From contig CAJOKE010000003.1 of assembly GCA_905235225.1 (NCBI GenBank), positions 18,816-82,815 on the forward strand: a DNA stretch of 64,000 bases, written 5' to 3'. Numbering within the stretch: position 1 is the first letter of the stretch; every line of letters starts with the position of its first letter. Below, in pieces: positions 478 to 58,802 of the stretch. Source of the DNA: Paludibacteraceae bacterium (GTDB taxonomy: Bacteria > Bacteroidota > Bacteroidia > Bacteroidales > Paludibacteraceae). Under the pieces are notes generated by a model. It was not told the origin of the DNA. It ran no database searches and worked only from the letters and a program-made list of their open reading frames with translations. The translations under genes and the position numbers were made by a program.

Positions 478-520
478 TTGTATGGTTATTGTATGGTTAT
501 TGTATGGTTATTGTATGGTT
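478..520. repeat. 11-bp tandem array (unit ttgtatggtta, ~4 copies)
   Basis: Units start at 478, 489, 500 and 511; the first three are identical and the fourth is cut after ten bases. The array lies between the convergent ends of the plug-domain gene and the BY-kinase gene. An inverted match (aaccatac, 445-452) to gtatggtt (480-487) could fold against the first unit. It is one of seven arrays in this window with 11- or 22-bp period. Confidence 0.9.
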
Positions 521-575
521 CCGGCTCGGGAAAAGCGGTACCGATTTGAGCAAGAACCAAATTTTGCGAAAACAG

Positions 576-629
576 AAACTATACGATAACAGGGCAAAAA
601 CTATACTATAACAGGGAAAAAACTATACG
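576..629. repeat. 22-bp tandem array (about 2.5 copies)
   Basis: Units begin with aaactatac at 576, 598 and 620, exactly 22 bp apart, and each full unit contains ataacaggg. The third, partial copy runs over the stop codon of the BY-kinase gene (minus-strand TAG at 625-623), so the array grew into, or out of, the 3' end of that gene. Confidence 0.85.
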
Positions 630-3211
630 TCGTCGTCGGAATAATAGTTATAAGAATTCTTATCCGTTTTATTGAAGACTTTGCCGTAGAGTTTGCCGTA
701 CTTGTATCGAAGTCCGCTGGTTTTCTGTCCATATCCGTAGCCATATGTGCCACCGCCGTATCCGTAACCGCCATAGGAGCCGTAACCATAGCCGTAGCCA
801 TATCCATAGCCGTAGCCGTGAGGACCGTCCGTAGGAATATCAGAGAGTACAAGTTGTACTTTTTCGGGTGTGTCCACGACTTCGGAAACCTGCTGCAGTG
901 TAGCTTTGCAGAAGGATTTGTTGGTCTGCATACAGCGAATGACAAAGAGTCCGATGTCCGAGAGTTCCAAGATAGCATAGGCATCAGGCACCAATCCGAT
1001 AGGCGATGTGTCGATGATGATGAAATCATACTTTTCGCGGAGCGTGTTGATGAGTTCAGCCAGTTTGTCGGAGTGTATCAGTTCACCCGGGTTAGGCGGA
1101 ATGGTACCGGCACGCATGATATCGAAATCAAAGGGTGAATTGGCAAATGTTTCCTCGAGTGTGCAATCACCAATGAGGTAATTGGAGATACCGGGTCCAC
1201 CATCCAAGCCCATTTTGGTATGAATGTTCGGTTTACGGATGTCCAAGTCCATGAGTAGCACTTTCTTACCGGTCATGGAATACAGGGCAGCCAAGTTAGA
1301 TGAAAGGAACGTTTTACCGTCACCGGATTCGGTAGAAGTGATACAGATTACCATTTTGTCCTTACGTTTGACGATGAACTCCATGCGTGTACGTATGGAG
1401 CGTAACATCTCGGCATAAGAGGAGCGCGGGTGATCACGCACCAAAGTGGGGTTTTGCGATTTAGTATGGCGTATGGTACCGATAAGGCGAAAGGCAGAAA
1501 GTTTCTCAACCTCTTTCGGAGTCCGCACCTTATTGTTAAGCAACTCGCTGGCTATAACCAAGACAAGCGGAATCAAGATACCAATGACGAGCGCGGTGGT
1601 ATTATTCTTTTTCTTGGTTTTGGAATTGACGGTACTGATGGTACGCGCCTTGTCCAGAATAGTATTATCGGGTGTGTTACTTGCCATTTGAATCTCCGCC
1701 TCAGCCCGTTTTTGCAAGAAGAACGTGTAGTAGTTATCGTCGATACGGTAATTACGCTCGATAGCAACCATCTGCAGTTCTTTTTTGGGGAGTTTCTGTA
1801 TTTCTTTTTCGACCTCGGCATAGCGTGCTTTGAGGTCTTGTTTCTCTATTTCCAACGAGGCGCGCATAGAGTTAACGACCTCATTGATCATCGTTTTGAC
1901 ATTCTCAATGTCTTTGGTGTATTTGGCGTAATAAACGTTTTTCTCGGTAAGTTCTCCGCGTTGGATGCGTAGGTCGTTGAGCTGCTGTACAAGAGAGACG
2001 AGGGAAACATCGCTCAATCCGAGGGTAGAAGGTGCAATAACGGCACCGCTTTCCATGTTTGTTTCCAGATAATTGGTGAGGTAATCAAAATAGGTTTCGC
2101 GCAGGCGCATGGACATCATTTCCTGGTCATAACCGGAGATACGGCTCATGAGTTGCCCTGCATAAGAGCCGACATCAACGAACTTATTCTCCTGCCGGAA
2201 TCCGGTCATGGCTCCTTCGCTGACTTCGAGAGACTCCTGCAAAGATTCGAGCTGCTTTGTGATGAAACGGATGGAGTTTTCGGCGACTTCATTCTTTTGT
2301 TCCAGGTTCTGCAGCAAAAATATTTTAGCGAGCATATCAATAATTTCGCAGTCACGTGCCGGTGTTTCGCTGACCAATCCGAGAGCCAAGACGGTACTAC
2401 CTTCGGTAACGAAAGAGAGGTTGAGACGGGACATTATTTCTCCCGCCAATCCATCTTTTGAACGGAATCGGAAGAAGATACGGCCTGATGAAACCATTCG
2501 TTCCGTGGGCCAGATGGTAGCTGTAAATAAGTCACTTTCAATCAGTTCCCCATAGTGTGCAACAGTACTGAAAGGGCGGTTTTCGTCCGTAGAAGTGATG
2601 GTCATAGAGCCATCTTTCTCGAAGTCGACTTGGAAGAGCAAGCCATATGTACCTTCTTTGACAACCGCCGGTTCAACGACAACAGGAGTTTCGCGATAAA
2701 TGTTCCGCGTTTTGAAACGTCCCTGTGTAATATATTCGGTATAAAGGAAAGGGAGTGAGTCCACTACCCTGCATGCGAGGTCATAAGAACGCAGCATGAT
2801 GAGCTGGTTCTGTACATTCTTATACCCGGCATCGACGCCGAAACCCTGCATGAGAATGGAGTTAGAGCCGCCATATCCCATTGTTTCCTTGATGATTATA
2901 GTTCCCTGAGAATAATATGAGGGTAGCCATTTGCGGTTCTGGAGGTAGGCGATGCCCAATGCAATGATGATACTGATAACAAAAAGATACCAATAGTTCA
3001 GGATTTTGAAGACCCACTCCAAGATATTAAAGGAAGAATTTTCTTCCTCATTGGGGTCTTGAAAATTATTGTAGTTGTTGTATTGGTTATTGCCATACTG
3101 ATTATTACCGTACTGGTTATTACCGTATTGTGCGTTACCATACTGGGCATTGCCATATTGAGCGTTGCCATACTGTGCATTTCCCTGAGTGTAAGTGCTA
3201 TTTGTATCCAT
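623..3211 (-). CDS. Exopolysaccharide co-polymerase/bacterial tyrosine kinase (Wzz-BY-kinase fusion)
   Basis: The 862-residue inner-membrane protein should control polysaccharide chain length and export. In order: an Asn/Gln/Tyr/Gly tail (1-60) with seven QYGNA/QYGNN repeats; membrane segment ~73-90; periplasmic Wzz/GumC region with coiled coil (~300-480); second membrane segment ~535-560; kinase domain with Walker A STESGDGKT (~626), Walker A' VLLMDLDIRKP (~651) and Walker B FIIIDTSP (~730). The tail from ~798 is Tyr/Gly-rich and ends NSYNYYSDDDV, the expected autophosphorylation cluster. It lies 2 bp after the wza-like gene. The repeat tail in front of the first membrane segment is unusual. 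Confident on family; the polymer is unknown. Confidence 0.93.
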   Translation of the reverse strand: MDTNSTYTQGNAQYGNAQYGNAQYGNAQYGNNQYGNNQYGNNQYNNYNNFQDPNEEENSSFNILEWVFKILNYWYLFVISIIIALGIAYLQNRKWLPSYYSQGTIIIKETMGYGGSNSILMQGFGVDAGYKNVQNQLIMLRSYDLACRVVDSLPFLYTEYITQGRFKTRNIYRETPVVVEPAVVKEGTYGLLFQVDFEKDGSMTITSTDENRPFSTVAHYGELIESDLFTATIWPTERMVSSGRIFFRFRSKDGLAGEIMSRLNLSFVTEGSTVLALGLVSETPARDCEIIDMLAKIFLLQNLEQKNEVAENSIRFITKQLESLQESLEVSEGAMTGFRQENKFVDVGSYAGQLMSRISGYDQEMMSMRLRETYFDYLTNYLETNMESGAVIAPSTLGLSDVSLVSLVQQLNDLRIQRGELTEKNVYYAKYTKDIENVKTMINEVVNSMRASLEIEKQDLKARYAEVEKEIQKLPKKELQMVAIERNYRIDDNYYTFFLQKRAEAEIQMASNTPDNTILDKARTISTVNSKTKKKNNTTALVIGILIPLVLVIASELLNNKVRTPKEVEKLSAFRLIGTIRHTKSQNPTLVRDHPRSSYAEMLRSIRTRMEFIVKRKDKMVICITSTESGDGKTFLSSNLAALYSMTGKKVLLMDLDIRKPNIHTKMGLDGGPGISNYLIGDCTLEETFANSPFDFDIMRAGTIPPNPGELIHSDKLAELINTLREKYDFIIIDTSPIGLVPDAYAILELSDIGLFVIRCMQTNKSFCKATLQQVSEVVDTPEKVQLVLSDIPTDGPHGYGYGYGYGYGYGSYGGYGYGGGTYGYGYGQKTSGLRYKYGKLYGKVFNKTDKNSYNYYSDDDV

Positions 3212-3213
3212 GG

Positions 3214-3993
3214 TTATTTAGCAATGGTTGCAGAGTAATTCAAAACGGATATCAAGAGCGAAACGGATGATGTGATCAGTCCCAAGAAACCGGTGTAATT
3301 CGCCACTTTGACGAAACTGTCTTTAGTCCGCGCCACATAAATGACATCGTTAGGATAAATATAGTAATATTTTGAGTCAATGATGGAGTTAGAGCGAATA
3401 TCGAACTCCAAGATTTCAGGTTCTTCGTCGCCGTGCGGGCGAATGATACGCACATGCTTGCGGTCGCCGGAATTAAGGAGGTCACCGGTCATAGCCAGTG
3501 CCTCGAAGATATTCATGTTCTCCTTATATAAATAATACTCGCCAGACCGGATATCACCGATGACGGTAAAGGTTTTATTATAGAGAGCGACCTTGACATC
3601 CGCATCGGGAATAATGACTTTGAAGGCGGCACGGATAGAATCCTGCGCCTGCTCGACGGTCAGTCCTTCCACATGAATCGGCTCCAAGAAAGGCAAGTCG
3701 ATAGTACCATCGTCATAGACGCGATAGGAGTTGGCGTATTGCGAAGAGGACATGTTCTGGTTTGCGCCCAAGACTTTGGAGATAGTCTCGTCCATAGTGA
3801 TGAGCCGGTAAATCAATTCATCGTTAACATGAATACGGTAAGGTTCATGAACAGAGTCCTTTTCGTAATCGGGGATTTTGTGCTTGCCGGGTTCCTGCAA
3901 GAGTCCGATGACGCGGTGGCTGTAACAGCCGGTCAGAATAAAGCCCGCGAAGACAACCACGAGCAATCGGAAAATATGTTTTGCTGCATTCAT
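3214..3993 (-). CDS. Polysaccharide export lipoprotein, Wza/KpsD-like (second paralogue)
   Basis: A 259-residue outer-membrane polysaccharide export protein. A hydrophobic N-terminus ends in the lipobox LTGC, followed by LLQEPGKHKIPDYEKDS. A poly-export domain (~45-130, YRIHVNDELIYRL) and an SLBB-type domain (~140-220, FTVIGDIRSGEYYLYKE) come next, then a hydrophobic C-terminal stretch. It closely resembles the neighbouring upstream gene (both contain LQEPGKHKIP and the NSKYYYIYPNDVIYVR-like end), so the pair is a tandem duplication, spaced 2 bp from each partner. It should form the outer-membrane part of the export channel driven by the BY-kinase. Whether both copies form one hetero-oligomer cannot be told. 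Confidence 0.92.
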   Translation of the reverse strand: MNAAKHIFRLLVVVFAGFILTGCYSHRVIGLLQEPGKHKIPDYEKDSVHEPYRIHVNDELIYRLITMDETISKVLGANQNMSSSQYANSYRVYDDGTIDLPFLEPIHVEGLTVEQAQDSIRAAFKVIIPDADVKVALYNKTFTVIGDIRSGEYYLYKENMNIFEALAMTGDLLNSGDRKHVRIIRPHGDEEPEILEFDIRSNSIIDSKYYYIYPNDVIYVARTKDSFVKVANYTGFLGLITSSVSLLISVLNYSATIAK

Positions 3994-3995
3994 GG

Positions 3996-4883
3996 TTATT
4001 GTCCTCCGTTATTGGCAGTTGAGCCTCCATTACTTGAAGAACTGCCATAATATTTATTAACATGATTGATACCCGTAGCCACAATGGTATAAACGAAAAC
4101 GCCAAATGAGAGCGTGGCGGAAACGACCGCCAAGCCGGCACTTGCGTTTGTTATACCGAAGGCTTTTCCGGTCAGTTCGCGGACATAGATAATGTCGTTC
4201 GGCTCGATATAATAAAACTCGGAATTAATAATATCCTTAGAGCGCAAGTCGAACTCCCGAATAGTTGTTTGTCCATCCTTTTCGCGTATGATTTTAACGC
4301 GCGAGCGATCGGAGAATGTTTGCAGGTTTCCCATTTGGGCAAGTGCCTCGAAGATGGTAAGTTTTTCCTTTTGGATAGTGTATCGTCCACTTTTAACGCC
4401 GATGAGGGAATATGTCCGCTGCAGGATTGTGACCTCGACAGAGATGGTCGAATATCCCGGAATTTCCTTGAGCAAGGAACCGAGTTCCTGCTCCATTTTC
4501 TGTTTTGTTTCCCTTGTAGTAAGTCCGGCGACATGAATTTTGCCGAGCGTAGGGAAATCAATATAGCCTTCTTTGTCCACGAGATATGAATACAGTTCAT
4601 TGGTATTGCGCCCGCTACTATTCATCTGCTGTAGCATCTGGCTACGTCCTTGTGAACCGGAGCCGGCATTGTACATTTTCATGACATTTTCGTCCAAGGA
4701 ATAGACATAGATATATAGCCGGTCATCAGGACGCACTTTGTACTCCTCAAAGTCAAGCGTATCGGCATAAGACGGGATCTTATGTTTGCCGGGTTCCTGC
4801 AGGTAATTGACCTTACGTGAAGTGACGCAGGAAGCGAGTGCAAATACAGCAATCAGTAGATAAACAAATTTTCTCATTGACAA
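3996..4883 (-). CDS. Polysaccharide export lipoprotein, Wza/KpsD-like (first paralogue)
   Basis: A 295-residue lipoprotein with signal peptide and lipobox ALASC (Cys ~19), then NYLQEPGKHKIPSYADT. The poly-export domain begins at YKVRPDDRLYIYVYSLDE and is followed by an SLBB domain (SLIGVKSGRYTIQKEKL). A hydrophobic segment near the C-terminus (GLAVVSATLSFGVFVYTIV) precedes a Ser/Gly/Asn-rich tail absent from the downstream paralogue. It is gene two of a four-gene operon, 12 bp after the sugar dehydrogenase. Expected role: outer-membrane channel for exopolysaccharide or capsule. Confidence 0.92.
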   Translation of the reverse strand: MSMRKFVYLLIAVFALASCVTSRKVNYLQEPGKHKIPSYADTLDFEEYKVRPDDRLYIYVYSLDENVMKMYNAGSGSQGRSQMLQQMNSSGRNTNELYSYLVDKEGYIDFPTLGKIHVAGLTTRETKQKMEQELGSLLKEIPGYSTISVEVTILQRTYSLIGVKSGRYTIQKEKLTIFEALAQMGNLQTFSDRSRVKIIREKDGQTTIREFDLRSKDIINSEFYYIEPNDIIYVRELTGKAFGITNASAGLAVVSATLSFGVFVYTIVATGINHVNKYYGSSSSNGGSTANNGGQ

Positions 4884-4895
4884 AGTGGTTCGTTA

Positions 4896-5891
4896 TTATC
4901 TTTTTTCATCCCATCCGAACGGATGTGTTGCGAGAGGCAATTTAGCGAGCGGATGATAATCACCAACAAGTCCGATGGGTTCGGCATGACGGATCTGGCT
5001 GACAATCTCAATACACGGTCTTGCCTCAGAAATACGGAAACCGTTTCCAGACAGGATGCGTTTATAGGACTCGGTATGCAGTTCTGTAAATCCTGCGCTA
5101 AACTCAAACTCTTCGCCATCAATATTGAGCGTACGGTACGTTTTCTTTTCGCCCTGTACGGCATTCGGCGGCAGGCATTCGGCGTTGATACTCAAGAAGT
5201 AACGTACCCGAGCTTTTTTGAGTTCCAAGAATCCGGCAACGCGGTCAAAGCTCATGACATGGACGATATTCTTTTGGACAGGACCGAAGATCCACTGGAG
5301 CATATCATAGAAGTGCACTCCGATGTTAGTAGCCACCCCACCCGATTTGTGGATATCGCCTTTCCAAGACGAATAGTACCACTTGCCGCGGGAAGTGATG
5401 TAGGTCAAATCCACGTCGTAGATTTTATCAGCAGGTCCCGCTTCCACTTTCTTTTTCAGATTAGCGATAGCTTCATGGAGCCGGAGTTGGAGAATGGTAT
5501 AAGCTTTGTGTCCCGTTTCCTGCTCCAATTCAATGAGGTTATCAATATTATATGGATTAAGGACAAGCGGTTTCTCACAAATGACATCCGTTCCGAGGCG
5601 CAAGCCATACCGAATAAAGGCATCGTGGGTATAATTGGGTGTACAAATAGATGTCCAATGGAGCGGATTGTCAGTACGCATCTGTTTGGAGCAGAAGCGG
5701 TCAAACTGCTCATTCTCCGTAAAGAAGGAGCAATCAGGGAAACTACTATCCAGCCTACCGACGGAATCAAACTTATCATACGCCACCATAAGATTATTTC
5801 CGGTATCAGCAATGGCCTTAATGTGTCGCGGAGCGATATATCCGGCGGCACCAATCAACGCAAAATTAAGTTTATTGTTCATTTTATCCAA
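4896..5891 (-). CDS. Gfo/Idh/MocA oxidoreductase, probable UDP-sugar 3-dehydrogenase (WlbA/WbpB-like)
   Basis: 331 residues (or 328 if the second ATG, at 5882, is used). The N-terminal Rossmann fold has GAAGYIAPRHIKAI, and the Gfo/Idh/MocA signature CEKP lies near residue 101. The segment GGVATNIGVHFYDMLQWIFG holds the conserved Asn and His of the family. The body resembles enzymes that oxidise C3 of UDP-GlcNAcA on the way to 2,3-diamino sugars (WlbA/WbpB). Being first in an operon with Wza-like and BY-kinase genes supports a role in making an unusual sugar for the exported polymer. The substrate is inferred; the family is secure. Confidence 0.85.
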   Translation of the reverse strand: MDKMNNKLNFALIGAAGYIAPRHIKAIADTGNNLMVAYDKFDSVGRLDSSFPDCSFFTENEQFDRFCSKQMRTDNPLHWTSICTPNYTHDAFIRYGLRLGTDVICEKPLVLNPYNIDNLIELEQETGHKAYTILQLRLHEAIANLKKKVEAGPADKIYDVDLTYITSRGKWYYSSWKGDIHKSGGVATNIGVHFYDMLQWIFGPVQKNIVHVMSFDRVAGFLELKKARVRYFLSINAECLPPNAVQGEKKTYRTLNIDGEEFEFSAGFTELHTESYKRILSGNGFRISEARPCIEIVSQIRHAEPIGLVGDYHPLAKLPLATHPFGWDEKR

Positions 5892-5902
5892 AAATTAGCG
5901 TG

Positions 5903-5934
5903 CAAAGATACACATTATTTTGCATATATGCAAA
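5903..5934 (-). promoter_or_regulatory. Promoter of the exopolysaccharide operon
   Basis: On the minus strand TTTG (5934-5931), a 20-bp spacer, then TATCTTTG (5910-5903) matches the Bacteroidota -33/-7 consensus. The predicted start is about 10-15 nt upstream of the first ATG of the dehydrogenase gene. The -33 box is half of the 16-bp palindrome TTTGCATATATGCAAA (5919-5934). Confidence 0.8.
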
Positions 5935-5988
5935 TATTTCACGCAAAATTACAAAAATCTATTATTTTGGTTATAAAAAACAGCATAA

Positions 5989-7986
5989 TCAGGGGTGAAC
6001 GCGCTGCAGGAGGATACGGAAGGTTGTCCCTTTAGGAGAAGACTCAAAGGTGATAGAGCCATCCGCGCCTTCGATAATATTCTTCGAAATAGCCAATCCC
6101 AAACCCGCCCCTGTGGATTTGGTAGTGAAGTTAGGCAAGAATATTTTCGGCTGCACATCTTCAGGGATACCGGGTCCGTTATCCGAAAAAGTAATTTCGA
6201 TATATGGATTAGCGGCATCGTCCTTGAGGATGACAATAATATCTCCGTCCGGAGCGGCATTGATGGCCTGCACGGCATTGCGGATGATGTTGGTGAAGAC
6301 CTGTCCGATCTGCTCTTTATCAGCATATGCCATAACACCGGCATCGGGACCAATATACCGGATAGAAGTACCTTGCGGATTGTGCGAAGTAAGTGAAATG
6401 ACGGCACTGAGTTTCTGCGCCACATCGACTTCGCCGGGCTGCACTTCGGGTTGTTTGGCAAATGTAGAAAAAGACGTAGCGATACGTGAGAGGTTATCCA
6501 TCTCGGTGATGAGCATGGCGGTCACCTTGTCAAACTGGGCATCAAAGCGGTCTGTTCCTTTGAGTCGTTGGAGTTGCTGGACCATGAGTTTCATCGAAGT
6601 CAGCGGATTATTTATCTCATGCGCAATCTGGCGTGCCATTGTCCGCCACGCCCCTTCCCGCTCGGAGCGTGCGAGTTGTTGCGAGGAGCGTGCAAGTTCG
6701 TCCACCATATCGTTGTAATGCGCCACCAGAACTCCCATTTCATCGTGCTGCTTATAGGGAATATGGCTGTTTTTATCGCTTAAGGAGAAGTTTTTCAACC
6801 GCTCGCCGACCGCCTCCATCGGGGCAGTCAACGCCCTTGACAAGCCAACTGCCAGCATGGCACCGAAAATGAGGACAAGCAGATAAACCGGCAAAAGCCG
6901 AGCCAAAAACGCCTCCACTTCGCGGTCAGCTTCCGCCTCAGAAATGAAGGAAGGAACGGCGATATATCCGAGCTGGACAAACGCTCCGTTAACAAACTCG
7001 GAGTACGCCGAAAGGAAGCGGAAATCACCCAGGGTGGTATAGCAGGTTTCTGTTTTTTGGGGTGAGAACAGAACTTCGGGAGCCAAATAAGTTGAAAGGA
7101 GTTTATGCCTAAAGAGTTGCGGTGTGGAAGAACCGACCAGCCGCCCCTGCAAGTCGTAGATATGAATGTCGGTGGCGTAAGAGTGCGCCAAGTCATGCAA
7201 AAAGACATTGAGTGAAGCGGGTTGCACCGCCTCGATGGTATATTCCCAAACGTAGATATTCTGGAGAGCCGCCTGAATGTAGTGGCATTTTTGGGTAAGT
7301 TCTTTTTCCTGGCGCGCGACATAGTGCGCCCGGATATACTTTACAGATACCAAGAACACCGCTACGAAGCCAAGCAGGACGACCATCATGATGGTGAAGG
7401 TAATTTTGGTACTAAGGCGCAGATTACGGAATCCCCTCGCCCTGATGATATAGACCGAGCCTGTGATCACCAAGGCGGCAAATGCGGCAATCATCAGCCA
7501 ATAGAATACACGCGCTTTGGTACGGGAAGAGAAAAGTCCGCCCTCGACAGTCGTTATACGCTGTAAAAGAGGCTGATATGAGAATGACTGTGAAATTTCC
7601 TCATTGGCATTGATATGCCACTCCAGCGGAATAATGGCTTCAACGTCATAATCGCCGATTTTTTGCCACAAGACCCTGCATCTGGCATTCGAAAAGTCAA
7701 AGTCATGCCATTTGTCATAAACGGGGACATATATATCCTGCGTTGTGAGGCTATTATCGGACCAATAGACCACCACTCCTTCAAAAAAAATGAGATAATG
7801 GATATCCGAAGAATGATGAGTGACCACCCAGATTGAGTCCATATTATCGGACAAGATAGCCTTACGCAGATCCTGAAGTTCATGCTCGGCACGGGTTTCC
7901 TTATGATGGATTTTATACTCCTGCCGAGAACAAGAGGCTGTCAGCAAAAGGAGCAAAAAGAATAGTATTTGTGTAACTTTTTTCAT
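5989..7986 (-). CDS. Membrane sensor histidine kinase (HAMP-HisKA-HATPase)
   Basis: The ATG at 7986 is preferred over a TTG at 7998, because the promoter -7 box (8003-7996) overlaps the TTG. The 665-residue protein starts with a lipoprotein-like signal (hydrophobic run ending TASC), then an extracytoplasmic domain, membrane segments near 165-190 and 200-225, a second extracytoplasmic region, and another membrane segment ~375-395. HAMP follows, then HisKA with the phosphoacceptor His in AHEINNPLTSMKLM, and an ATPase domain with NIIRNAVQA, DNGPGIP and GLGLAISK. The architecture resembles NtrY-type kinases. No response regulator is adjacent, so partner and signal are unknown. Confidence 0.9.
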   Translation of the reverse strand: MKKVTQILFFLLLLLTASCSRQEYKIHHKETRAEHELQDLRKAILSDNMDSIWVVTHHSSDIHYLIFFEGVVVYWSDNSLTTQDIYVPVYDKWHDFDFSNARCRVLWQKIGDYDVEAIIPLEWHINANEEISQSFSYQPLLQRITTVEGGLFSSRTKARVFYWLMIAAFAALVITGSVYIIRARGFRNLRLSTKITFTIMMVVLLGFVAVFLVSVKYIRAHYVARQEKELTQKCHYIQAALQNIYVWEYTIEAVQPASLNVFLHDLAHSYATDIHIYDLQGRLVGSSTPQLFRHKLLSTYLAPEVLFSPQKTETCYTTLGDFRFLSAYSEFVNGAFVQLGYIAVPSFISEAEADREVEAFLARLLPVYLLVLIFGAMLAVGLSRALTAPMEAVGERLKNFSLSDKNSHIPYKQHDEMGVLVAHYNDMVDELARSSQQLARSEREGAWRTMARQIAHEINNPLTSMKLMVQQLQRLKGTDRFDAQFDKVTAMLITEMDNLSRIATSFSTFAKQPEVQPGEVDVAQKLSAVISLTSHNPQGTSIRYIGPDAGVMAYADKEQIGQVFTNIIRNAVQAINAAPDGDIIVILKDDAANPYIEITFSDNGPGIPEDVQPKIFLPNFTTKSTGAGLGLAISKNIIEGADGSITFESSPKGTTFRILLQRVHP

Positions 7987-7991
7987 TTTCG

Positions 7992-8023
7992 CTTGCAAAA
8001 TTACAAAAAAAACCTTACCTTTG
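7992..8023 (+). promoter_or_regulatory. Promoter of the permease-trmN6 pair
   Basis: CTTG (7992-7995), a 20-bp spacer and TACCTTTG (8016-8023). The element is fully superimposed on the oppositely oriented kinase promoter, so the two promoters probably exclude each other. Confidence 0.75.
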
Positions 8024-9492: not shown

Positions 9493-9579
9493 TCTACAGT
9501 TGAGAACAATCTAATATTTTGACGTTCAGGCTAAGTGTTTAGTTTGTAGTAAACGAGCCGTTTCTGAGGAATGAATTGT

Positions 9580-9678
9580 GCAATAATATTACAAGAATAG
9601 TACAAGAATAGTGCAAGAATACTGCAATAATAGTACGATAATAGTGCAATAATAGTGCGATAATAGTGCGATAAGGGG
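9580..9678. repeat. 11-bp tandem array (nine units related to gcaataatagt)
   Basis: Nine 11-bp units start at 9580, 9591, 9602, 9613, 9624, 9635, 9646, 9657 and 9668. Variation is mostly gca/aca/gcg/acg at the start of the unit and aataatag/agaatag in the middle. It lies between the convergent ends of trmN6 and rplT. Confidence 0.9.
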
Positions 9679-9704
9679 TACTGAATATCAATGAGTTACG
9701 AGAA

Positions 9705-9880
9705 GTGGAGTTTTAGGGAAACGGAAGTGAGGGAGAAAAGGAAGAGGAGTGAGGGAGAAAAGGAAGAGGAGTGAGGGGGAAAAGAAAGAGGAGTGAGGGG
9801 GAAAGAAATGAGGAGTGAGGGAGAAAAGACAGAGGAGTGAGGGGGAAAGAAATGAGGAGTGAGAGGGAAAAGAAAAAGAG
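9705..9880. repeat. 22-bp polypurine tandem array (seven good copies plus one degenerate)
   Basis: Copies beginning gtgagg or gtgaga start at 9727, 9749, 9771, 9793, 9815, 9837 and 9859; a weaker copy starts at 9705. The plus strand is almost pure purine. Reverse-strand open frames here give low-complexity Ser/Leu/Pro/Phe peptides that I reject as genes. The last copy merges into the terminator stem at 9874. Confidence 0.92.
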
Positions 9881-9900
9881 TGCGGGGACCGCACTCTTTT
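9874..9900. terminator. Bidirectional terminator between trmN6 and rplT
   Basis: A perfect 12-bp stem (aaaagagtgcgg at 9874-9885, ccgcactctttt at 9889-9900) with loop gga. The A-tract and T-tract in the arms allow termination of transcripts from both sides. Confidence 0.9.
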
Positions 9901-9921: not shown

Positions 9922-10269
9922 TTACTTTTTCACTTTGTCGCAAATAGCTTTGAAAGCTTTTGGCTGGTTCATAGCGAGGTCAGCGAGGACCTTGCGGTTG
10001 ATTTCGATGCCGGCTTTTTTCAAAGCACCCATCAACTGACTGTAGCTAAGTCCTTCGAGACGAGCGGCAGCGTTGATACGCTGAATCCACAAAGCGCGGA
10101 ATGAGCGTTTTTTGTTTTTACGATCGCGATAAGCGTACTGGAGACCCTTCTCCCATGTGTTTTTGGCGACTGTCCAAACATTAGCACGGCCACCAAAGTT
10201 ACCTCTTGTGAGGCTCATGATCTTCTTGCGGCGTGCGCGTGAAGCAACGTGATTTACTGATCTTGGCAT
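9922..10269 (-). CDS. rplT: 50S ribosomal protein L20 (bL20)
   Basis: 115 residues, the normal length. It begins [17 protein letters not shown] and has the conserved [14 protein letters not shown] segment and an L20 end ([18 protein letters not shown]). It is the last gene of infC-rpmI-rplT, 28 bp after rpmI. In several bacteria L20 represses this operon by binding its mRNA; the infC-rpmI hairpin noted below is a candidate site. Very secure. Confidence 0.98.
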
Positions 10270-31943: not shown

Positions 31944-32004
31944 CGTCCGGACATTTTTTGAAGAACTTGCCGATTTTATCGCGTATAAAATTTCCACAGC
32001 ACAT

Positions 32005-32059
32005 ATTAGGATTTTATTAGGATATTATTAGGTTATTATTAGGATATTATTAGGTTATT
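32005..32059. repeat. 11-bp tandem array (five units of attaggatatt/attaggttatt)
   Basis: Units start at 32005, 32016, 32027, 32038 and 32049. After the first they alternate between ggatatt and ggttatt, giving a 22-bp higher-order period. The array lies between two divergent promoters, upstream of both. The rest of the 31857-32270 gap holds those promoters; 32060-32176 shows nothing else I can support. Confidence 0.9.
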
Positions 32060-40084: not shown

Positions 40085-40193
40085 AATACAGATAAATAAT
40101 TAAGTTAATAAAAAATTAGGAATGTGCCTAATGGCACGTAGAAACAAATATTAGGAATAGATGGGTGTATCCAAAACCGGATTGTGACGTACT

Positions 40194-40226
40194 GAATGCG
40201 AACGTGATGCGAACGAGATGCGAACG
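40194..40226. repeat. 11-bp tandem array (three units ending atgcgaacg)
   Basis: Units start at 40194, 40205 and 40216 (gaatgcgaacg, tgatgcgaacg, agatgcgaacg). The array lies between two genes of the same strand, 110 bp ahead of the 40084 start. Confidence 0.75.
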
Positions 40227-40244
40227 GGAGTAGCTGTCAAAGTA

Positions 40245-40276
40245 TAAAAAAGGTGAGCCAATCGATTTGACACACC
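40245..40276 (-). terminator. Probable terminator after the 40295 gene
   Basis: On the minus strand a ten-bp stem with two mismatches (ggtgtgtcaa / ttggctcacc) is followed by a run of six T. Confidence 0.65.
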
Positions 40277-52297: not shown

Positions 52298-52327
52298 TTA
52301 AGTTGTCACCTTCTAATTCGAAATTAT

Positions 52328-52921: not shown

Positions 52922-52947
52922 GCATATAATCTTCCAATACACATACC

Positions 52948-53223
52948 ATGTTACACAAACTCATTTCACCACTGCATCATGAGAATCTGACGCTCCCCTT
53001 TGAGCCGGATCCACAATGGGTGGAAGACAATCAGGTTGTCGCTGTCATGACCGGCGGCAGCGAAGCTTTGTTCCTTGATAAGGTCAACAAGGGTGACATC
53101 ACTCTTGACAAACCTATTTACCTCATTGCCGGCGAGCAGAGTAACTCGCTTGCCGCCTGCTGCGAAATTTTAAGTTGGATCAATCAACACAATGGAAATG
53201 GACAGATTAGGACTCATCGGTAA
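52948..53223 (+). CDS. Fucose-isomerase-like protein, N-terminal part (split gene)
   Basis: 91 residues. VVAVMTGGSEALFLDKV and PIYLIAGEQSNSLAACCEI look like the N-terminal domain of sugar-isomerase-like proteins, but the frame stops after NQHNGNGQIRTHR. The remainder continues in the +1 frame at 53192, after an overlap of about 30 bp. Either two coupled polypeptides form the enzyme, or a frameshift has split one gene of ~325 residues. It lies 26 bp after rnfA. Confidence 0.6.
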   Translation: MLHKLISPLHHENLTLPFEPDPQWVEDNQVVAVMTGGSEALFLDKVNKGDITLDKPIYLIAGEQSNSLAACCEILSWINQHNGNGQIRTHR

Positions 53224-53938
53224 GCCGTCGGATTGGCTTATATCTTCGACTTTTGATACACAAATCATACGCGAGAAACTCAACTGCGAAATCATTGAAA
53301 TTCCCATTGAAGAAGTACAATCCCTTGGCGAAGTCGAAGAGGGAGAAAAAGGCGCGCTGCGTATCTACGAGCGACTGAAAGAATTAGTCGCCAAATACAA
53401 CTTGTACGGTCTGACACTGCGTTGTTTTGACCTGCTCACTGTTTGCAAGAACACCGGCTGTCTCGCTCTTGCAAAGCTGAACGCCGATGGTATTCCTGCC
53501 GCCTGCGAGGGGGATGTTCCCGCTTTGCTCACAATGGTACTGGCACATCGCTTGACCGGCTGCTCCGGCTTCCAGTGTAACCCCGCACGTGTCAATACCG
53601 ACAATGGCGAAATGCTGTGGGCGCATTGCACGATTCCGCTCAATATGGTGGATAAATACGTATATGACTCCCACTTTGAGTCCGGCATCGGTATTTCTAT
53701 TCATGCCGAACTGCCTTTAGGGAAATACACCTTGGTGAAAGTCAGCGGAGACCTCAAACGTGTCTTTGCCGAAGATGTGGAACTGGTGCGTAACCAGTAC
53801 CAACCGAACTTGTGCCGCACTCAAGTTTGGCTCAAAACCCAACACGTTATCCCTTACTTGCTTTCCAAGCCCATTGCCAACCACCATCTGCTTGTCCCGG
53901 GACATCACGCCGCAGAGTTTGTCAATGCGGTTCAATAA
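53192..53938 (+). CDS. Fucose-isomerase-like protein, C-terminal part (split gene)
   Basis: 248 residues. It contains GLIGKPSDWLISS, LTLRCFDLLTVCKNTGCLALAK (split here), IPAACEGDVPALLTM and FQCNPARVN, reminiscent of the L-fucose/L-arabinose isomerase fold. The ATG at 53192 sits within the end of the preceding frame. In that second frame a stop at 53171-53173 prevents a longer N-terminus. Both parts keep good codon structure. Sugar substrate unknown. Confidence 0.65.
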   Translation: MEMDRLGLIGKPSDWLISSTFDTQIIREKLNCEIIEIPIEEVQSLGEVEEGEKGALRIYERLKELVAKYNLYGLTLRCFDLLTVCKNTGCLALAKLNADGIPAACEGDVPALLTMVLAHRLTGCSGFQCNPARVNTDNGEMLWAHCTIPLNMVDKYVYDSHFESGIGISIHAELPLGKYTLVKVSGDLKRVFAEDVELVRNQYQPNLCRTQVWLKTQHVIPYLLSKPIANHHLLVPGHHAAEFVNAVQ

Positions 53939-53940
53939 TA

Positions 53941-53979
53941 AAGAGAGTGTGCCAATCTGTTTTGACACACTCTTTTTTT
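53941..53979 (+). terminator. Terminator after the isomerase-like genes
   Basis: agagtgtg-c-ca pairs with tg-a-cacactct (one mismatch) and is followed by eight T. The A-tract before the stem may let it serve the convergent coaX transcript as well. Confidence 0.85.
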
Positions 53980-53995
53980 TATTCTGTCTAACGAC

Positions 53996-54733
53996 CTATC
54001 TTGGTTTATTGAATTCTAAAATAGCATTCAGCCCTATCAGAACGAGGTGCTTCTCATGATGGAAACTGTACCGGCAGTTGTTGAGTATATACGGTGCATT
54101 GCCACCGGTCAGAAATATGGCATAGTGCTTGCATCGTTCGCCTAACGTTCGGATATAGCCCTTCACTTCATACGCTATTCCGCGAACCACACCTGCCGCT
54201 ATCGCATCGCGGGTCGTCTTGCCGTATAGCGGTATCAACTCGTTCTCCTCAACATCCACCAATGGAAGTTTCTTCGTCATCCGGTTGAGCATGGTCAGAC
54301 GCATCTTGATTCCGGGTGCTATATTACCGCCTAAAAACTCATTCTTTTCCGACACAAAATCGTATGTCAACGCCGACCCTGCATCAATAATCAGCAGATT
54401 CTCATTCGGACAAAGCGACACGGCACCTACTGCGGCTGCCAGACGGTCCTGACCCAATGTCTCCGGAGACATATAACAATTGGCTATCGGCACCGGAGTA
54501 AAATGGTCAAACAGCACAAAATACTTGGAAAGCCGGTTCAGCGTATTCACAACTGCCGGTTCTATATTCACTACCGACGATATGATACTGTCGGTTATCG
54601 AATACAACGAGAACAACCTTTCTATGTCATTCGCGGTAAAGGACTTGTAGATGAAGTTCTTAACGATACGTCCGTCGGACTCAAACAAAGCCACTTTCGT
54701 TCGCGAATTTCCTTGGTCGATGGCTAAATTCAT
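53996..54733 (-). CDS. coaX: Type III pantothenate kinase
   Basis: 245 residues. N-terminal LAIDQGNSRTKVALFE, the central LGQDRLAAAVGA and LLIIDAGSALTYDFV, and APGIKMRLTMLNRMT identify CoaX. It carries out the first step of CoA synthesis. Its start shares one base with the stop of the acyl-CoA ligase gene, so CoA supply and use are linked in one operon. Confidence 0.95.
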   Translation of the reverse strand: MNLAIDQGNSRTKVALFESDGRIVKNFIYKSFTANDIERLFSLYSITDSIISSVVNIEPAVVNTLNRLSKYFVLFDHFTPVPIANCYMSPETLGQDRLAAAVGAVSLCPNENLLIIDAGSALTYDFVSEKNEFLGGNIAPGIKMRLTMLNRMTKKLPLVDVEENELIPLYGKTTRDAIAAGVVRGIAYEVKGYIRTLGERCKHYAIFLTGGNAPYILNNCRYSFHHEKHLVLIGLNAILEFNKPR

Positions 54734-56409
54734 TATACCTCTACGTTCGTGTACAGGAATCGCTTGATTGACTTCTTCGGCGTTTTCTCAAACTCATGAG
54801 GGAACAGCTTGATACTGTTCAGTTGCTCATATGACGCCAAGTCCGCATTGACTTGTTTCCGCACTTCTTCCATGTGCGCTTCCAACTGCTCTTTGGTCAG
54901 ACCGCTCGCATCCACCTCATTGTAATCCGGACATACCAGTGCCACCAATCGCGTGTCATCGGTTTGGATAACAAGCGACTCCAATACATACGGCATATTG
55001 TTCAGTTTCGCCTCTATCTCTTCCGGATAAATATTCTGCCCGCTCGGACCAAGAAGCATCGTCTTGCACCTTCCCTTGATGAACAGATACCCGTCCTCAT
55101 CAATTATGCCCAAATCACCTGTCCGCAGCCATCCGTCTTTGGTAAAACTGTCCTTGGTCGCCTGAGGGTTCTTGAAATAACCCGTCATCACATTCTCCCC
55201 GCGGACAACAACCTCTCCTATGCCCTCTTCGTTCGGGTGAATAATCTTCACATCCATCAGTCCCGGCAAAGCGCGACCGCACGAATACAGCTTGCCCCCT
55301 TCCGAATACGGCGTAAACGTAATCAACGGCGCACACTCCGTCATTCCGTAGCCGATAGTCATCGGGAACTTGATTCGTGTCAGGAATGCCTCAACCTCCG
55401 GGTTCAAAGGCGCACCGCCTATGATGATTTGCTGGAACGCACCACCGAACGCCTCTACCAACTGCTGACGTATCTTGCTGCATACTACCTCATCCAAAAA
55501 CGGCACCTTCAGCACCCAACTGATTGGCGGCTTCTGTATCTGGGGGACTATCATCTTCTTGTATATCTTCTCCAATATCAGCGGAACGGACAATATCAGC
55601 GTCGGCTTGATCTCCGCAAACGCCTGAAGCAATATCTTCGGAGACGGCGTCCTGCCTATCAGGTACGAATGACCGCCCGCTGCCAGACACGCAAGAAAAT
55701 CAAACGCACAACCGTATGCGTGAGCAAGAGGCAGAAACGTCACGTGTCGCGCCCCTTGGAAGGTCAGCCGCTTGTCCAATCCATAACGCACATTCCCCGC
55801 CAATCCGTTCAGCGGCATGATAACACCCTTGCTGAAACCCGTCGTTCCCGATGTATAGTTAATCGACCCGATGGCACTGTTCGGCCTGTCCGCATATTTC
55901 ACACTCTCACGGGTAAATCCGCCGGCGTACTTTTTGTTGAACGCTTCTTCTACATCTCCCCACGTAATCTCTTTATGGTGCCGATGGGCAATCAGTTTGA
56001 AGTTGGTCAGAGAATACACTGCCTTCACCGTCTCTACCTGCTCCAGATCCATATTCTCCCATATCGCATCGGTGATGAACAGCAACTTCGACTCCGAATG
56101 ATTGATGATATGCTGCGCATCATTCGCCTTGAAATCCTGTAGTATCGGAACTATTATACCGCCATACGTGATCGTTGCCAGATACACCGTCACCCAGTTG
56201 CAGTTATTCCTGCCCATCACGGCGATCTTGTCGTCCTTCTTTATCCCGAACAGCTTGAATAGCAAATGAAGACGAGCCACTTGGGCTGCCAAACGACCGT
56301 AGGTCAGCGTATTCGCGGTTCCATAGTCCGTAACGGCATTCAGCTCCCAGTTCTCACGGAACGAACGCTCATACATTTTGACAAAATTGTCTTGTTCTGA
56401 TGTCAGCAT
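54733..56409 (-). CDS. AMP-binding acyl-CoA synthetase (second paralogue)
   Basis: 558 residues. Adenylation motifs: INYTSGTTGFSKGV (P-loop), YGMTECAPLI, DGWLRTGDLGIID, and the Lys-containing C-terminal FEKTPKKSIKRFLY. It should activate a carboxylic acid, most likely a long-chain fatty acid, to its acyl-CoA. It closely resembles the gene upstream (17 bp apart), the pair being a tandem duplication. Confidence 0.92.
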   Translation of the reverse strand: MLTSEQDNFVKMYERSFRENWELNAVTDYGTANTLTYGRLAAQVARLHLLFKLFGIKKDDKIAVMGRNNCNWVTVYLATITYGGIIVPILQDFKANDAQHIINHSESKLLFITDAIWENMDLEQVETVKAVYSLTNFKLIAHRHHKEITWGDVEEAFNKKYAGGFTRESVKYADRPNSAIGSINYTSGTTGFSKGVIMPLNGLAGNVRYGLDKRLTFQGARHVTFLPLAHAYGCAFDFLACLAAGGHSYLIGRTPSPKILLQAFAEIKPTLILSVPLILEKIYKKMIVPQIQKPPISWVLKVPFLDEVVCSKIRQQLVEAFGGAFQQIIIGGAPLNPEVEAFLTRIKFPMTIGYGMTECAPLITFTPYSEGGKLYSCGRALPGLMDVKIIHPNEEGIGEVVVRGENVMTGYFKNPQATKDSFTKDGWLRTGDLGIIDEDGYLFIKGRCKTMLLGPSGQNIYPEEIEAKLNNMPYVLESLVIQTDDTRLVALVCPDYNEVDASGLTKEQLEAHMEEVRKQVNADLASYEQLNSIKLFPHEFEKTPKKSIKRFLYTNVEV

Positions 56410-56426
56410 AGTATCAGTTTTTATGG

Positions 56427-58094
56427 TTAATCCACACGGGTATAGAGAAAACGCTTGATTGACTTCTTCGGCGTCTTTTCAAACTCATGAGGGTATAGTT
56501 GCAATTTGCTTATTTGCTCATACGATGCGATTTGCGCATTCAGATTGCGACGGTTCGTTTCCATCGCCGCTTCCAGCATTTCTTTGGTCAGATGGTCCGC
56601 ATCTACTGCCACATAATCAGGGCAGACCAATGCCACCAATGCACCTTCGTACTGAATCACAAGCGACTCCATCACATACGGCATGTTGTTCAGCTTGGAC
56701 TCTATCTCTTCCGGGTAAATGTTCTGACCGCTCGGACCGAGAAGCATACTCTTGTCGCGACCCTTGATGAAGATATAGTTCTCTTTGTCAATATATCCGA
56801 GGTCACCCGTTTTCAGCCAGCCGTCCGGCGTAAATATCAGCCGTGTCGCTTCTTCGTTCTTGTAATAACCTTTCATCAGATGTTCGCCGCGCACCTGCAG
56901 TTCACCCACACCCTCCGAATTAGGTTCCGCTACACGCACCTCCATCAATCCTTCCAACGGCTTGCCGCAGCACTGCTGCTTGTAATCCTTGTGGTTCACA
57001 TACGAAATCAGCGGAGCGCACTCCGTCATGCCGTATCCCACGGTATAGGGGAAACGTATCCTATTCAAAAATGCGTCAACCTCCGTATTCAGCGGAGCAC
57101 CGCCGATAATCACCTCGTTCACACATCCGCCGAACGCTTCTAATAACGCCTGACGAAGTTTCCCCAGCACAACCTCATCGAGGAACGGAACCTTCATCAC
57201 CCAGCTCACCGGCGGCTTTGAAATCTGAGGAACTATCTTGCTCTTGTATATCTTCTCCAATATCAACGGAACCGTCAGTACGCAGGTCGGCTTAACTTCC
57301 GCAAACGCCTGCAGCAGCACCTTCGGCGACGGCGTCTTGCCCAACAGCCACGCATGCCCCCCAGCGCAGAACGTACTCAGAAAATCAAACGCACAGCCGA
57401 ACGCATGAGCCAGAGGCAAAAACACCACCTGACGGCAACCCTTATACGTCACATGCACGTCTATACAGAACTTCACATTCCCCGCCAATGCGTTCAACGG
57501 AGTCACTACCCCTTTCGAGAACCCCGTCGTTCCCGATGTATAATTGAACGACGCTATCTCATCATTCTGCTTGTCGCTGTACGACAACTGGTCCGCTTGA
57601 ATGCCCTTCGGATAAAGCCGTTCATATTCCTGACCTATCCGCTTCGGGGTCAGACCGTCTCTGTTAAATCCTTCCGTTACTGCCAATGGCGCATAATCAC
57701 TCAGCGAGAACACCGCCTTCACCGTTTCCATCTGGGAAATATCCATGTTCTCATACAGCGAATCCGCTATGAACAGCAGCTTCGACTCCGAATGGTTGAT
57801 GATATGCAGCGCATCATTCGCACGGAAATCCTGTAGTATCGGTACAATGATGGCACCATATGTCACCGATGCCAAATACACCGTCACCCAGTTGCACGTG
57901 TTCTTGCCCATCAGCCCGATACAATCGTTCTTGCCAACACCGCACGTGCGGAACAGAATATGCAACCGCGCTATCTCCGCTGCCACATCGCCGTAACTCA
58001 TCGTCCGCTCCGTACCGTAATCCGTGAACGCAGCAGACTCCCAGTTCGCGCAAATCGACTTGCGGATCGTCTCTATAAATGGCTCGCTTATCAT
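56427..58094 (-). CDS. AMP-binding acyl-CoA synthetase (first paralogue)
   Basis: 555 residues from the ATG at 58094, which overlaps the TAA of the preceding gene by one base. The longer in-frame start at 58196 lies inside that gene. Motifs: FNYTSGTTGFSKGV, YGMTECAPLI, DGWLKTGDLGYID and FEKTPKKSIKRFLY. It differs from its paralogue mainly in the middle third and at the very ends. Substrate chain length is unknown. Confidence 0.92.
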   Translation of the reverse strand: MISEPFIETIRKSICANWESAAFTDYGTERTMSYGDVAAEIARLHILFRTCGVGKNDCIGLMGKNTCNWVTVYLASVTYGAIIVPILQDFRANDALHIINHSESKLLFIADSLYENMDISQMETVKAVFSLSDYAPLAVTEGFNRDGLTPKRIGQEYERLYPKGIQADQLSYSDKQNDEIASFNYTSGTTGFSKGVVTPLNALAGNVKFCIDVHVTYKGCRQVVFLPLAHAFGCAFDFLSTFCAGGHAWLLGKTPSPKVLLQAFAEVKPTCVLTVPLILEKIYKSKIVPQISKPPVSWVMKVPFLDEVVLGKLRQALLEAFGGCVNEVIIGGAPLNTEVDAFLNRIRFPYTVGYGMTECAPLISYVNHKDYKQQCCGKPLEGLMEVRVAEPNSEGVGELQVRGEHLMKGYYKNEEATRLIFTPDGWLKTGDLGYIDKENYIFIKGRDKSMLLGPSGQNIYPEEIESKLNNMPYVMESLVIQYEGALVALVCPDYVAVDADHLTKEMLEAAMETNRRNLNAQIASYEQISKLQLYPHEFEKTPKKSIKRFLYTRVD

Positions 58095-58522
58095 TACTGT
58101 ACCGGCTCCGGAACATCCAATAGATTGTCGGACTCGGGTTCCTTGTTCTCTATCACAATTATCCGGTCTACGATAAACTGACTCTTTCCGCGCCATGGCA
58201 ATGTACCCAAATAACGCTTCCAGTGCAGCTTAACCTGCTTGCTCGACATACTCTCAATCTCCATCGCTACTGCCGCATCTGCTACCGAAAACTTGAACTC
58301 GTTCGACTGAATCGTCGCATTCGAGTTCTTGCTGTTGTAACCCGTCTGTATCATCTTACCCTCATACGTCTTGAAAATGACACCCTCCTTCTGGAAGTAG
58401 TTGATGTCACCTTCGTTCGTTCCCTCGCTATATACAAAACAGAACTTGAAGAAGATAAATCCCGCCAGCCCAATGACTATTATCACTGACAACCAGCCCA
58501 ATACTTTTCCTGATGTTGACAT
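58094..58522 (-). CDS. Membrane-anchored small protein of a conserved Bacteroidales family
   Basis: 142 residues. One membrane anchor (VLGWLSVIIVIGLAGFIFFKF) is followed by a soluble part with FVYSEGTNEGDI, FKTYEGKM, VKLHWKRYLGTLPWRG and IVDRIIVIE. I recall the family from Bacteroides genomes, where it is sometimes mislabelled as 6-phosphogluconate dehydrogenase; no dehydrogenase motif is present. First gene of an operon with two acyl-CoA synthetases and coaX. Function unknown. Confidence 0.75.
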   Translation of the reverse strand: MSTSGKVLGWLSVIIVIGLAGFIFFKFCFVYSEGTNEGDINYFQKEGVIFKTYEGKMIQTGYNSKNSNATIQSNEFKFSVADAAVAMEIESMSSKQVKLHWKRYLGTLPWRGKSQFIVDRIIVIENKEPESDNLLDVPEPVQ

Positions 58523-58553
58523 AATTATTTCGTTTTATTTGATTTCTACGCCG

Positions 58554-58585
58554 CAAAAGTACTACTTTTTTTTCATTTATACAAA
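58554..58585 (-). promoter_or_regulatory. Promoter of the acyl-CoA synthetase-coaX operon
   Basis: Minus strand TTTG (58585-58582), a 20-bp spacer, TACTTTTG (58561-58554). Leader about 28 nt. Confidence 0.8.
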
Positions 58586-58641
58586 AAAAAATTATATCTT
58601 CTCAAAAAAACACGCTTTTTACCGAAAAATAACATTTTTTT

Positions 58642-58673
58642 GTTGCATATTCCGTAATTATACCGTACCTTTG
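58642..58673 (+). promoter_or_regulatory. Promoter of the first small-paralogue gene
   Basis: GTTG (58642-58645), a 20-bp spacer, TACCTTTG (58666-58673), then caaccgatttt. Transcription would start about 15 bp ahead of the 11-bp array, so the array is part of a leader of about 200 nt. Confidence 0.78.
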
Positions 58674-58692
58674 CAACCGATTTTCGACACTT

Positions 58693-58802
58693 CTAACCGA
58701 AGGATAACCGAACGATAACCGAAGGATAACCGAATGATAACCGAACGATAACCGAACGATAACCGAAGGATAACCGAACGATAACCGAACGATAACCGAA
58801 CG
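58693..58802. repeat. 11-bp tandem array (ten units of ataaccgaacg)
   Basis: Units start every 11 bp from 58693 to 58792. The first begins ct instead of at; later variation is at base 10 only (c, g or t: gaacg, gaagg, gaatg). It lies in the transcribed leader of the 58884 gene. The rest of the 58523-58883 gap holds two promoters and AT-rich DNA. Confidence 0.95.

What the first reader, a model, noticed from the sequence alone, without database searches (positions are those of the whole stretch)
478..58802. Seven intergenic tandem arrays with unrelated units but one shared period of 11 or 22 bp
Arrays lie at 478-520, 576-629, 9580-9678, 9705-9880, 32005-32059, 40194-40226 and 58693-58802. The unit sequences have nothing in common (for example ttgtatggtta, attaggatatt, ataaccgaacg, a GA-rich 22-mer), yet every period is 11 or 22. 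None is in a coding region apart from the overlap with one stop codon. Random slippage would give mixed periods. A shared period with free sequence suggests selection or a copying mechanism tied to helical pitch or to a protein or RNA that counts 11 bp.
Basis: seen in the sequence. Interest (0 to 1): 0.8.

Follow-up and report, generated by a model that had tools for sequence, protein, structure and literature searches.

The report
Directional arrays of 11-base words
Five of these seven repeat arrays are copies of intergenic elements built from a few conserved 11-base words that recur at dozens of places in this bacterial genome, and for seven word families the genes on one side carry a strand-biased composition footprint, so those elements likely act as rows of protein-binding sites that would anchor a one-sided DNA process.

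Summary
In 1.256 Mb of the genome, 85 of 120 intergenic tandem arrays have periods of 11, 22, 33 or 44; shuffled intergenic DNA gives none at 11. The units are not free: 89 arrays fall into the 11 largest word clusters, scattered over the genome. Within a word, variation sits at fixed wobble positions (22 of 23 deviations in 57 units of word F2 lie at one base). Most families are polar: pyrimidine-rich leader, array, tail. Locus-specific minisatellites of mixed period lie on the leader side 58 times, on the tail side 8 times. Coding DNA on the leader side shows a GC-skew gradient at third codon positions, -0.25 in the first kb and near zero at 7-8 kb. At 11 of 11 comparable leader-side genes it is more negative than in the nearest relative's orthologue. 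Two families show the left-right difference in other species (one at p 0.007, one at p 0.05); a mixed set, mostly from that relative, does not. I read the elements as iteron-like protein-binding arrays; protein and process are inferred. Relatives also use periods 7 and 8, so helical pitch is no universal rule.

The parts
477..520 (-). F1 word array, 4 units of TTGTATGGTTA (sense strand, leader first: CCATACAATAA)
521..575 (-). leader side of F1 (GGAAAAG on + strand), facing the 623-3211 autokinase gene
576..629 (.). 22-bp companion minisatellite on the leader side of F1; overlaps the stop of the 623-3211 gene
9557..9573 (-). F3 tail motif (GCCGT...CTGA type; weakly matched here)
9574..9674 (-). 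F3 word array, 9 units of ATAGTGCAATA (sense: TATTGCACTAT)
9675..9701 (-). F3 leader GGGGTACTGAATATCAATGAGTTACGA
   Evidence: matched by F3 hits in G165
9726..9887 (.). locus-specific purine-rich 22/44-bp companion minisatellite on the leader side of F3
9876..9900 (.). terminator-like hairpin with T-run (both directions) next to rplT 9922-10269
   Evidence: seen in sequence; rplT by Pfam PF00453
31991..32003 (+). F4 leader TTTCCACAGCACA
32004..32059 (+). F4 word array, 5 units of TATTAGGATAT / TATTAGGTTAT
40177..40242 (.). F5 element: 3 units of ATGCGAACGNN (40196-40226) between flanks that look inverted (GTGACGTACTGA ... AGTAGCTGTCAAAG); separate class without footprint
58694..58805 (+). F2 word array, 10 units of TAACCGAA[CGT]GA
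58806..58829 (+). F2 tail GTGCGCTT...AAGG

Best explanation
The arrays are the cores of multi-copy, directional intergenic elements built from conserved 11-bp words, and they likely work as iteron arrays: rows of sites predicted to bind a protein once per unit, which would anchor a one-sided DNA process (unidirectional synthesis, restart or strand exposure) entering the leader side. Shown: word families, variation restricted to wobble positions, leader-array-tail polarity, one-sided companion minisatellites, and a polar GC-skew gradient in flanking coding DNA of this genome. Inferred: that a protein reads the words, that the constant 11-bp spacing reflects its stacking along one face of the helix, and that the gradient comes from repeated DNA synthesis or strand exposure that starts at the element. 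F5 is a separate class, more like an ordinary operator; F7, F9 and the CGTAACCGTCC arrays also lack the footprint.
For: Recurring words: 89 of 115 lag-11 arrays in the 11 largest clusters. Unit-level constraint: F2, 22 of 23 deviations in 57 units at position 9; F5, 34 of 39 in 38 units at positions 10-11. Flank motifs of F1, F2, F6, F7 were found only beside arrays. Leader-array direction agrees with transcription in 25 of 34 co-directional gene pairs, p 0.009. Companions 58 leader side, 8 tail side. Third-position skew -0.248 to -0.007 over leader kb 1-8, flat -0.07 to -0.10 on the tail side, 59 elements, 0 of 20,000 orientation flips as low; negative in all seven polar families. 11 of 11 leader-side genes within 1.5 kb more negative than the G165 orthologue, p 0.001; tail-side 5 of 9, distant 46 of 85. 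Other species: F6 -0.106 leader, +0.074 tail, p 0.007.
Against: 19 family-oriented arrays of other species (15 from G165) show no clear skew gradient, only higher third-position GC on the leader side, and 19 composition-oriented period-11 arrays of the genus show nothing. F8 in other species is borderline (p 0.05), five longer F8 loci show no difference, and for F6 the orientation-flip statistic is not significant (1768 of 10,000). The strict paired leader-tail test in G000 is p 0.03. At infC G165 has an F4 array of its own yet no skew. No reader found: RHH_1, Rep_3 and reverse transcriptase absent in G000. Leading-strand sign not established. Periods 7 and 8 in relatives.
Confidence: 0.4

Rival explanations
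1. They are non-autonomous mobile elements (MITE-like) with an internal minisatellite, as BrickBuilt in Porphyromonas gingivalis; polarity reflects insertion preference behind terminators and in C-rich, G-poor strands.
For: Conserved flanks at unrelated sites; none of 12 comparable junctions keeps its family in G165; upstream sense terminator in 17 of 78 arrays against 9 of 137 control points.
Against: No clear terminal inverted repeats except around F5 and F7 (by eye); no copies with a transposase found among flank-motif hits in the sampled 1.256 Mb; insertion alone does not explain wobble-restricted variation. Target duplications could not be tested because spacers are too diverged.
Confidence: 0.3
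2. They are operators or 3'-end control sites of transcription: direct-repeat sites of regulators that bind tandem 11-bp units, or Rho-loading sites in the C-rich leader.
For: Direction agrees with transcription in 25 of 34 co-directional pairs; leader C-rich and G-poor; F5 has 2-3 units and inverted flanks.
Against: Skew footprint is seen in genes of either strand; F4 and F8 sense words contain no YC dinucleotide; loci turn over; divergent, convergent and co-directional spacers are all used. OmpR-type regulators were not searched for.
Confidence: 0.13
3. Neutral minisatellites made by replication slippage, with period 11 by history.
For: The companions do have mixed periods and unique sequences.
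Against: Dispersed recurring words and wobble-restricted variation; no period-11 arrays in shuffles.
Confidence: 0.04
4. The words are written by a templated copying machine (reverse transcriptase).
For: Fixed period with species-specific spelling: F2 is TAACCGAACGA in G000 and TAACCGAATGT at three loci of G165.
Against: No RVT_1 domain in 8 of 10 genomes searched, G000 (83% complete) and G165 included; three-letter wobble at one position is not what one template gives.
Confidence: 0.04

Closest known systems
BrickBuilt MITE of Porphyromonas gingivalis (PMC4596501; abstract, section 5 and part 1 of section 7 read)
   Same: same order of bacteria; intergenic; tandem repeats between a leader and a tail; many loci; species-specific
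   Different: 23-bp unit, one family, 12-bp terminal inverted repeats like IS5 elements; no polar composition footprint mentioned in what I read
TAACTGA direct repeats of Beggiatoaceae, some Cyanobacteria and Bacteroidetes (PMC4679880; abstract and section 12 read)
   Same: short fixed-period direct repeats, intergenic, 169 sets in one genome, function unknown
   Different: one 7-bp word; mostly just upstream of start codons; no leader, tail or footprint mentioned there
Heptamer repeats of Nostoc and Xanthomonas (PMC4692102; abstract read) and cyanobacterial STRR sequences (recalled)
   Same: one fixed period, dispersed in non-coding DNA, preferred copy number
   Different: period 7, G-quadruplex forming in the first case
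Plasmid replication iterons (recalled)
   Same: direct repeats phased to the helix, each unit a protein site, next to a DNA process
   Different: one locus per replicon with its own initiator gene; here dozens of chromosomal loci, and Rep_3 not found

Membership tests
ordinary slippage minisatellite | unit sequence unique to its locus | tested here: not met
   89 arrays in the 11 largest word clusters; met only by the companions
ordinary slippage minisatellite | mutations spread evenly over the unit | tested here: not met
   uneven in F1-F6, F8, F10; F7 with 20 units not distinguishable
STRR / TAACTGA-type dispersed short repeats | fixed short period at many intergenic loci | tested here: met
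STRR / TAACTGA-type dispersed short repeats | 7-bp unit | tested here: not met
   period 11
BrickBuilt-like MITE | conserved leader and tail around the repeats | tested here: met
   for F1, F2, F3, F5, F6
BrickBuilt-like MITE | terminal inverted repeats matching an insertion sequence | tested here: inconclusive
   inverted flanks seen by eye in F5 and F7 only; no IS comparison made
BrickBuilt-like MITE | target-site duplication | tested here: inconclusive
   spacers of G000 and G165 too diverged to align
CRISPR array | repeats separated by unique spacers | tested here: not met
   units are contiguous
Rep_3-type iteron origin | iteron-binding initiator in the genome | tested here: not met
   PF01051 0 of 10 genomes; other initiator families not searched
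ribbon-helix-helix operator or centromere array | RHH protein in the genome | tested here: not met
   PF01402 not found in G000, found in 3 of 10 genomes searched; other RHH families not searched
OmpR/PhoB-type operator | 11-bp direct repeats bound by a response regulator | not tested
   spacing fits (recalled); no regulator search made
reverse-transcriptase-made repeats | reverse transcriptase in the genome | tested here: not met
   PF00078 absent in G000 and G165, present in 2 of 10 genomes

The most novel reading that the evidence does not exclude
The chromosome carries about a hundred iteron-anchored, unidirectional replication or restart sites. A transcript crosses the 11-bp words and the purine tract, forms an RNA-DNA hybrid (A-form, 11 bp per turn, which would fix the period at 11 and not 10.5) and primes synthesis into the leader side, so that local strand asymmetry is organised by the elements and not by two replichores.
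Probability: 0.1. Interest if true: 0.93.

Novelty: new variant of a known kind. Interest (0 to 1): 0.72.

Why it matters
Dispersed short tandem repeats of one fixed period are described in several bacteria, without a settled function in the papers I read. In this genome each unit is constrained, the elements have a direction, and they coincide with a one-sided composition gradient in nearby genes. If that link is causal, it gives a measurable trace of what such repeats do, and the question becomes testable from sequence and with simple replication or mutation maps.

Tried and rejected
Random slippage for the word arrays. A universal helical-pitch rule (periods 7 and 8 elsewhere). Rho sites with a YC dinucleotide every 11 nt: the sense words of F4 and F8 hold none; only the leader is C-rich. 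A small-RNA promoter on the tail side: TANNTTTG pointing into the array in 8 of 72. Ribbon-helix-helix reader, Rep_3 initiator, reverse transcriptase: none in G000. Phage origin of the words: exact three-unit patterns of F2, F3 and F4 gave 0 hits in IMG/VR, F8 one contig. Replichore-scale orientation: neighbouring elements 24 same, 22 opposite. Leading-strand sign from the majority gene strand: no clear result. Empty-site alignment of four G000 junctions with G165: too diverged. Literature: eight searches listed no paper whose title or listed abstract start describes 11-bp word arrays or such a footprint; most subscription papers are outside that library.
Full report
Observation. TRF finds all seven arrays at the stated places. 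The window is part of an unnamed 2.24 Mb genome in 82 contigs (G000, about 83% complete). The nearest named matches of its ribosomal protein L20 are Bacteroidales metagenome genomes. I sampled the window plus 60 stretches, 1.256 Mb in all. At TRF score 50 or more, 85 of 120 intergenic arrays have periods 11, 22, 33 or 44. Ten dinucleotide shuffles of the intergenic DNA gave 0-3 arrays each and never period 11, against 54 real ones of period 11. Genes were called throughout as long ORFs by a script, so 'intergenic' and gene strand are approximate.

The units are words. Of 127 arrays with periods that are multiples of 11 (score 40 or more), 115 repeat at lag 11 (identity 0.6 or more), and 89 of these fall into the 11 largest clusters (3 to 16 arrays each, single linkage at two mismatches; two further clusters of three look like A-rich chance matches, and a few members of the 11 are weak). 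Window arrays 477, 9574, 32004, 40196 and 58694 belong to F1, F3, F4, F5 and F2. The other two window arrays (576, 9726) are 22-bp repeats without 11-bp substructure beside F1 and F3. Several families have conserved flanks (F1, F2, F3, F5 and F6 clearest). In the sample, flank motifs of F1, F2, F6 and F7 matched only within 60 bp of listed arrays. Of the F3 and F5 motifs some matched elsewhere: 3 of 14, 13 of 25 and 1 of 7 for three F3 motifs at up to 3 mismatches, which look like chance, and 3 of 16 for the F5 left motif, which are short F5 copies.

Each unit is constrained. In F2, 22 of 23 deviations among 57 units at five loci are at position 9 (C 35, G 13, T 9, A 0). In F5, 34 of 39 deviations among 38 units are at positions 10 and 11. 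F1, F3, F4, F6 and F8 also vary at preferred positions, F10 less strongly (p 0.003), and F7 with 20 units does not. In F2 the wobble letters differ from locus to locus while the other positions hold. A row of recognition sites would show this.

The elements have a direction. I oriented each family so that its pyrimidine-rich flank (leader) is on the left. The 60 bases before the array are 65% pyrimidine against 51% after it (72 arrays) and 48% in 65 array-free co-directional spacers; since the family orientation was chosen from this feature, the mean is partly by construction. Without F5, leader-to-array agrees with transcription in 25 of 34 co-directional gene pairs (p 0.009). A terminator-like hairpin lies upstream in the sense direction in 17 of 78 arrays against 9 of 137 control points; the other three positions (6, 7 and 9 of 78) are near control. 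Second, locus-specific tandem repeats within 250 bp lie on the leader side 58 times and on the tail side 8 times; their periods are mixed, 15 of 58 multiples of 11 on the leader side, six of them 44 bp.

The footprint. For 59 elements of F1, F2, F3, F4, F6, F8 and F10 in G000, third-codon-position GC skew on the sense strand, from ORFs of 200 aa or more that touch no array, is -0.248, -0.170, -0.120, -0.089, -0.047, -0.069, -0.016 and -0.007 in leader kilobases 1 to 8 (36 to 52 elements per bin), and flat between -0.07 and -0.10 on the tail side. It appears in genes of either strand. None of 20,000 orientation flips (51 elements) gave as low a mean for leader kb 1-3; the paired leader-tail test gives p 0.03, and p 0.0006 in the looser version with 100-aa ORFs and 2-kb windows (57 elements). 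Third-position GC is also higher on the leader side. Array-free spacers oriented by their most pyrimidine-biased 60 bases give -0.054 in the first kb (130 spacers). All seven families have a negative leader mean (F4 least consistent, 10 of 16 loci); F5, F7, F9 and the CGTAACCGTCC arrays show none.

Relatives. G165 is the closest of 12 genomes compared in one gene (78% DNA identity). In 398 kb of it 21 of 39 intergenic arrays are 11n, with partly the same and partly new words; the F2 word is spelled TAACCGAATGT at three loci and nearly so at a fourth. Of 12 junctions of G000 arrays with an orthologous immediate neighbour in G165 away from a contig end, none keeps its family, 3 carry another 11-bp word (plug/wzc: F2 type where G000 has F1; trmN/rplT: F4 where G000 has F3; one F8 for F5) and 9 carry none; a fourth swap is seen through a second neighbour. 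Given how common arrays are in G165 spacers, 3 of 12 is about what unrelated placement would give (estimate, no call). Behind rplT, 10 of 30 genus loci could not be read by my script; of 19 other species read, 3 have an 11-bp-type array there, each with a different word. A named relative, L062, has an F4-like array there.

Orthologue test. For leader-side genes within 1.5 kb, 11 of 11 have a more negative skew in G000 than in the G165 orthologue (mean -0.312 against -0.049, p 0.001); at 1.5-3 kb, 7 of 9 (p 0.03). Tail-side genes (5 of 9, and 2 of 6 farther out) and distant genes (46 of 85) show no such shift. Two of the 11 lie at junctions where G165 has its own array with the leader facing the same gene: at wzc the values are alike (-0.308, -0.297); at the gene next to rplT (IF-3-like, recalled) they are not (-0.279, -0.052).

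Replication elsewhere, with its limits. F6 at 27 loci and F8 at 29 loci of other species show leader skew below tail skew (-0.106 v +0.074, p 0.007; -0.179 v -0.045, p 0.05); the orientation-flip statistic is 27 of 10,000 for F8 but 1768 of 10,000 for F6, where the sign changes across the array; five longer F8 loci show no difference. Nineteen family-oriented arrays of other species (15 from G165, four F8 elsewhere) show no clear skew gradient, only higher third-position GC on the leader side, and 19 composition-oriented period-11 arrays of the genus show nothing. In the genus, 133 of 178 genomes (own included) match at least one family, with only two candidates scored per genome; F8 is found in 48 of 101, F6 in 13 of 178, F3 in 9 of 178.

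Interpretation. Unit-level constraint with fixed spacing points to a protein that binds once per unit. A gradient that peaks at the element and falls over several kilobases on one side, in genes of both directions, points to a DNA process that starts at the element and runs into the leader side; the crowding of young tandem duplications at the same end fits. Under the usual rule that the leading strand is G-rich (recalled), the sign fits synthesis moving from the array into the leader side. I could not confirm that rule for this genome, and an insertion preference for C-rich, G-poor strands would also give the correlation. The main rival is a mobile element of the BrickBuilt kind; both readings can be true together. 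F5 lacks the footprint and has flanks that look inverted, so I treat it as a separate class.

Reader not found. No RHH_1, Rep_3 or reverse transcriptase domain was found in G000, which is incomplete. OmpR-type regulators and other initiator families were not searched.

Noticed in passing
L061-L140 (80 named Bacteroidetes loci around rplT): Periods 7, 14, 21 and 42 make up 38 of 85 intergenic arrays, a different lineage-specific period that may be the same kind of thing.
   Followed up: partly
L336 (IMG/VR contig, 12,904 bases), 3184-3282: The only viral-collection contig with an exact F8 three-unit pattern, nine units in a row; whether it is a prophage with host flank was not checked.
   Followed up: no
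window 58666-58673: TACCTTTG, like the Bacteroidetes -7 promoter element (recalled), just before the F2 array; the array may lie in the 5' leader of the gene at 58884-59294, which has no Pfam match.
   Followed up: no
window 40252-40276 and several F5 and F1 loci: Terminator-like hairpins of similar sequence (GTGTGTCAAA...TTGGCACAC) beside several arrays, perhaps a repeated terminator family.
   Followed up: no
L043, L049, L050, L056, L165 beside F6, F2 and F4 arrays: 8-bp repeats of CGTACTGA / CGGGATGA in leader-side companions; the same letters occur in the F5 flank.
   Followed up: no
window 62029-62063: Rfam DUF805b cis-regulatory RNA (RF02914), 42 bits.
   Followed up: no
window 54733-56409 and 56427-58196: Two adjacent genes about 70% identical in DNA over 1.1 kb; the second matches adenylate-forming acyl-CoA ligases below their cut-offs.
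   Followed up: no
window 3080-3181 and 778-819: In-frame repeats at both ends of the 623-3211 tyrosine autokinase (NAQYG and GYGYG stretches).
   Followed up: no
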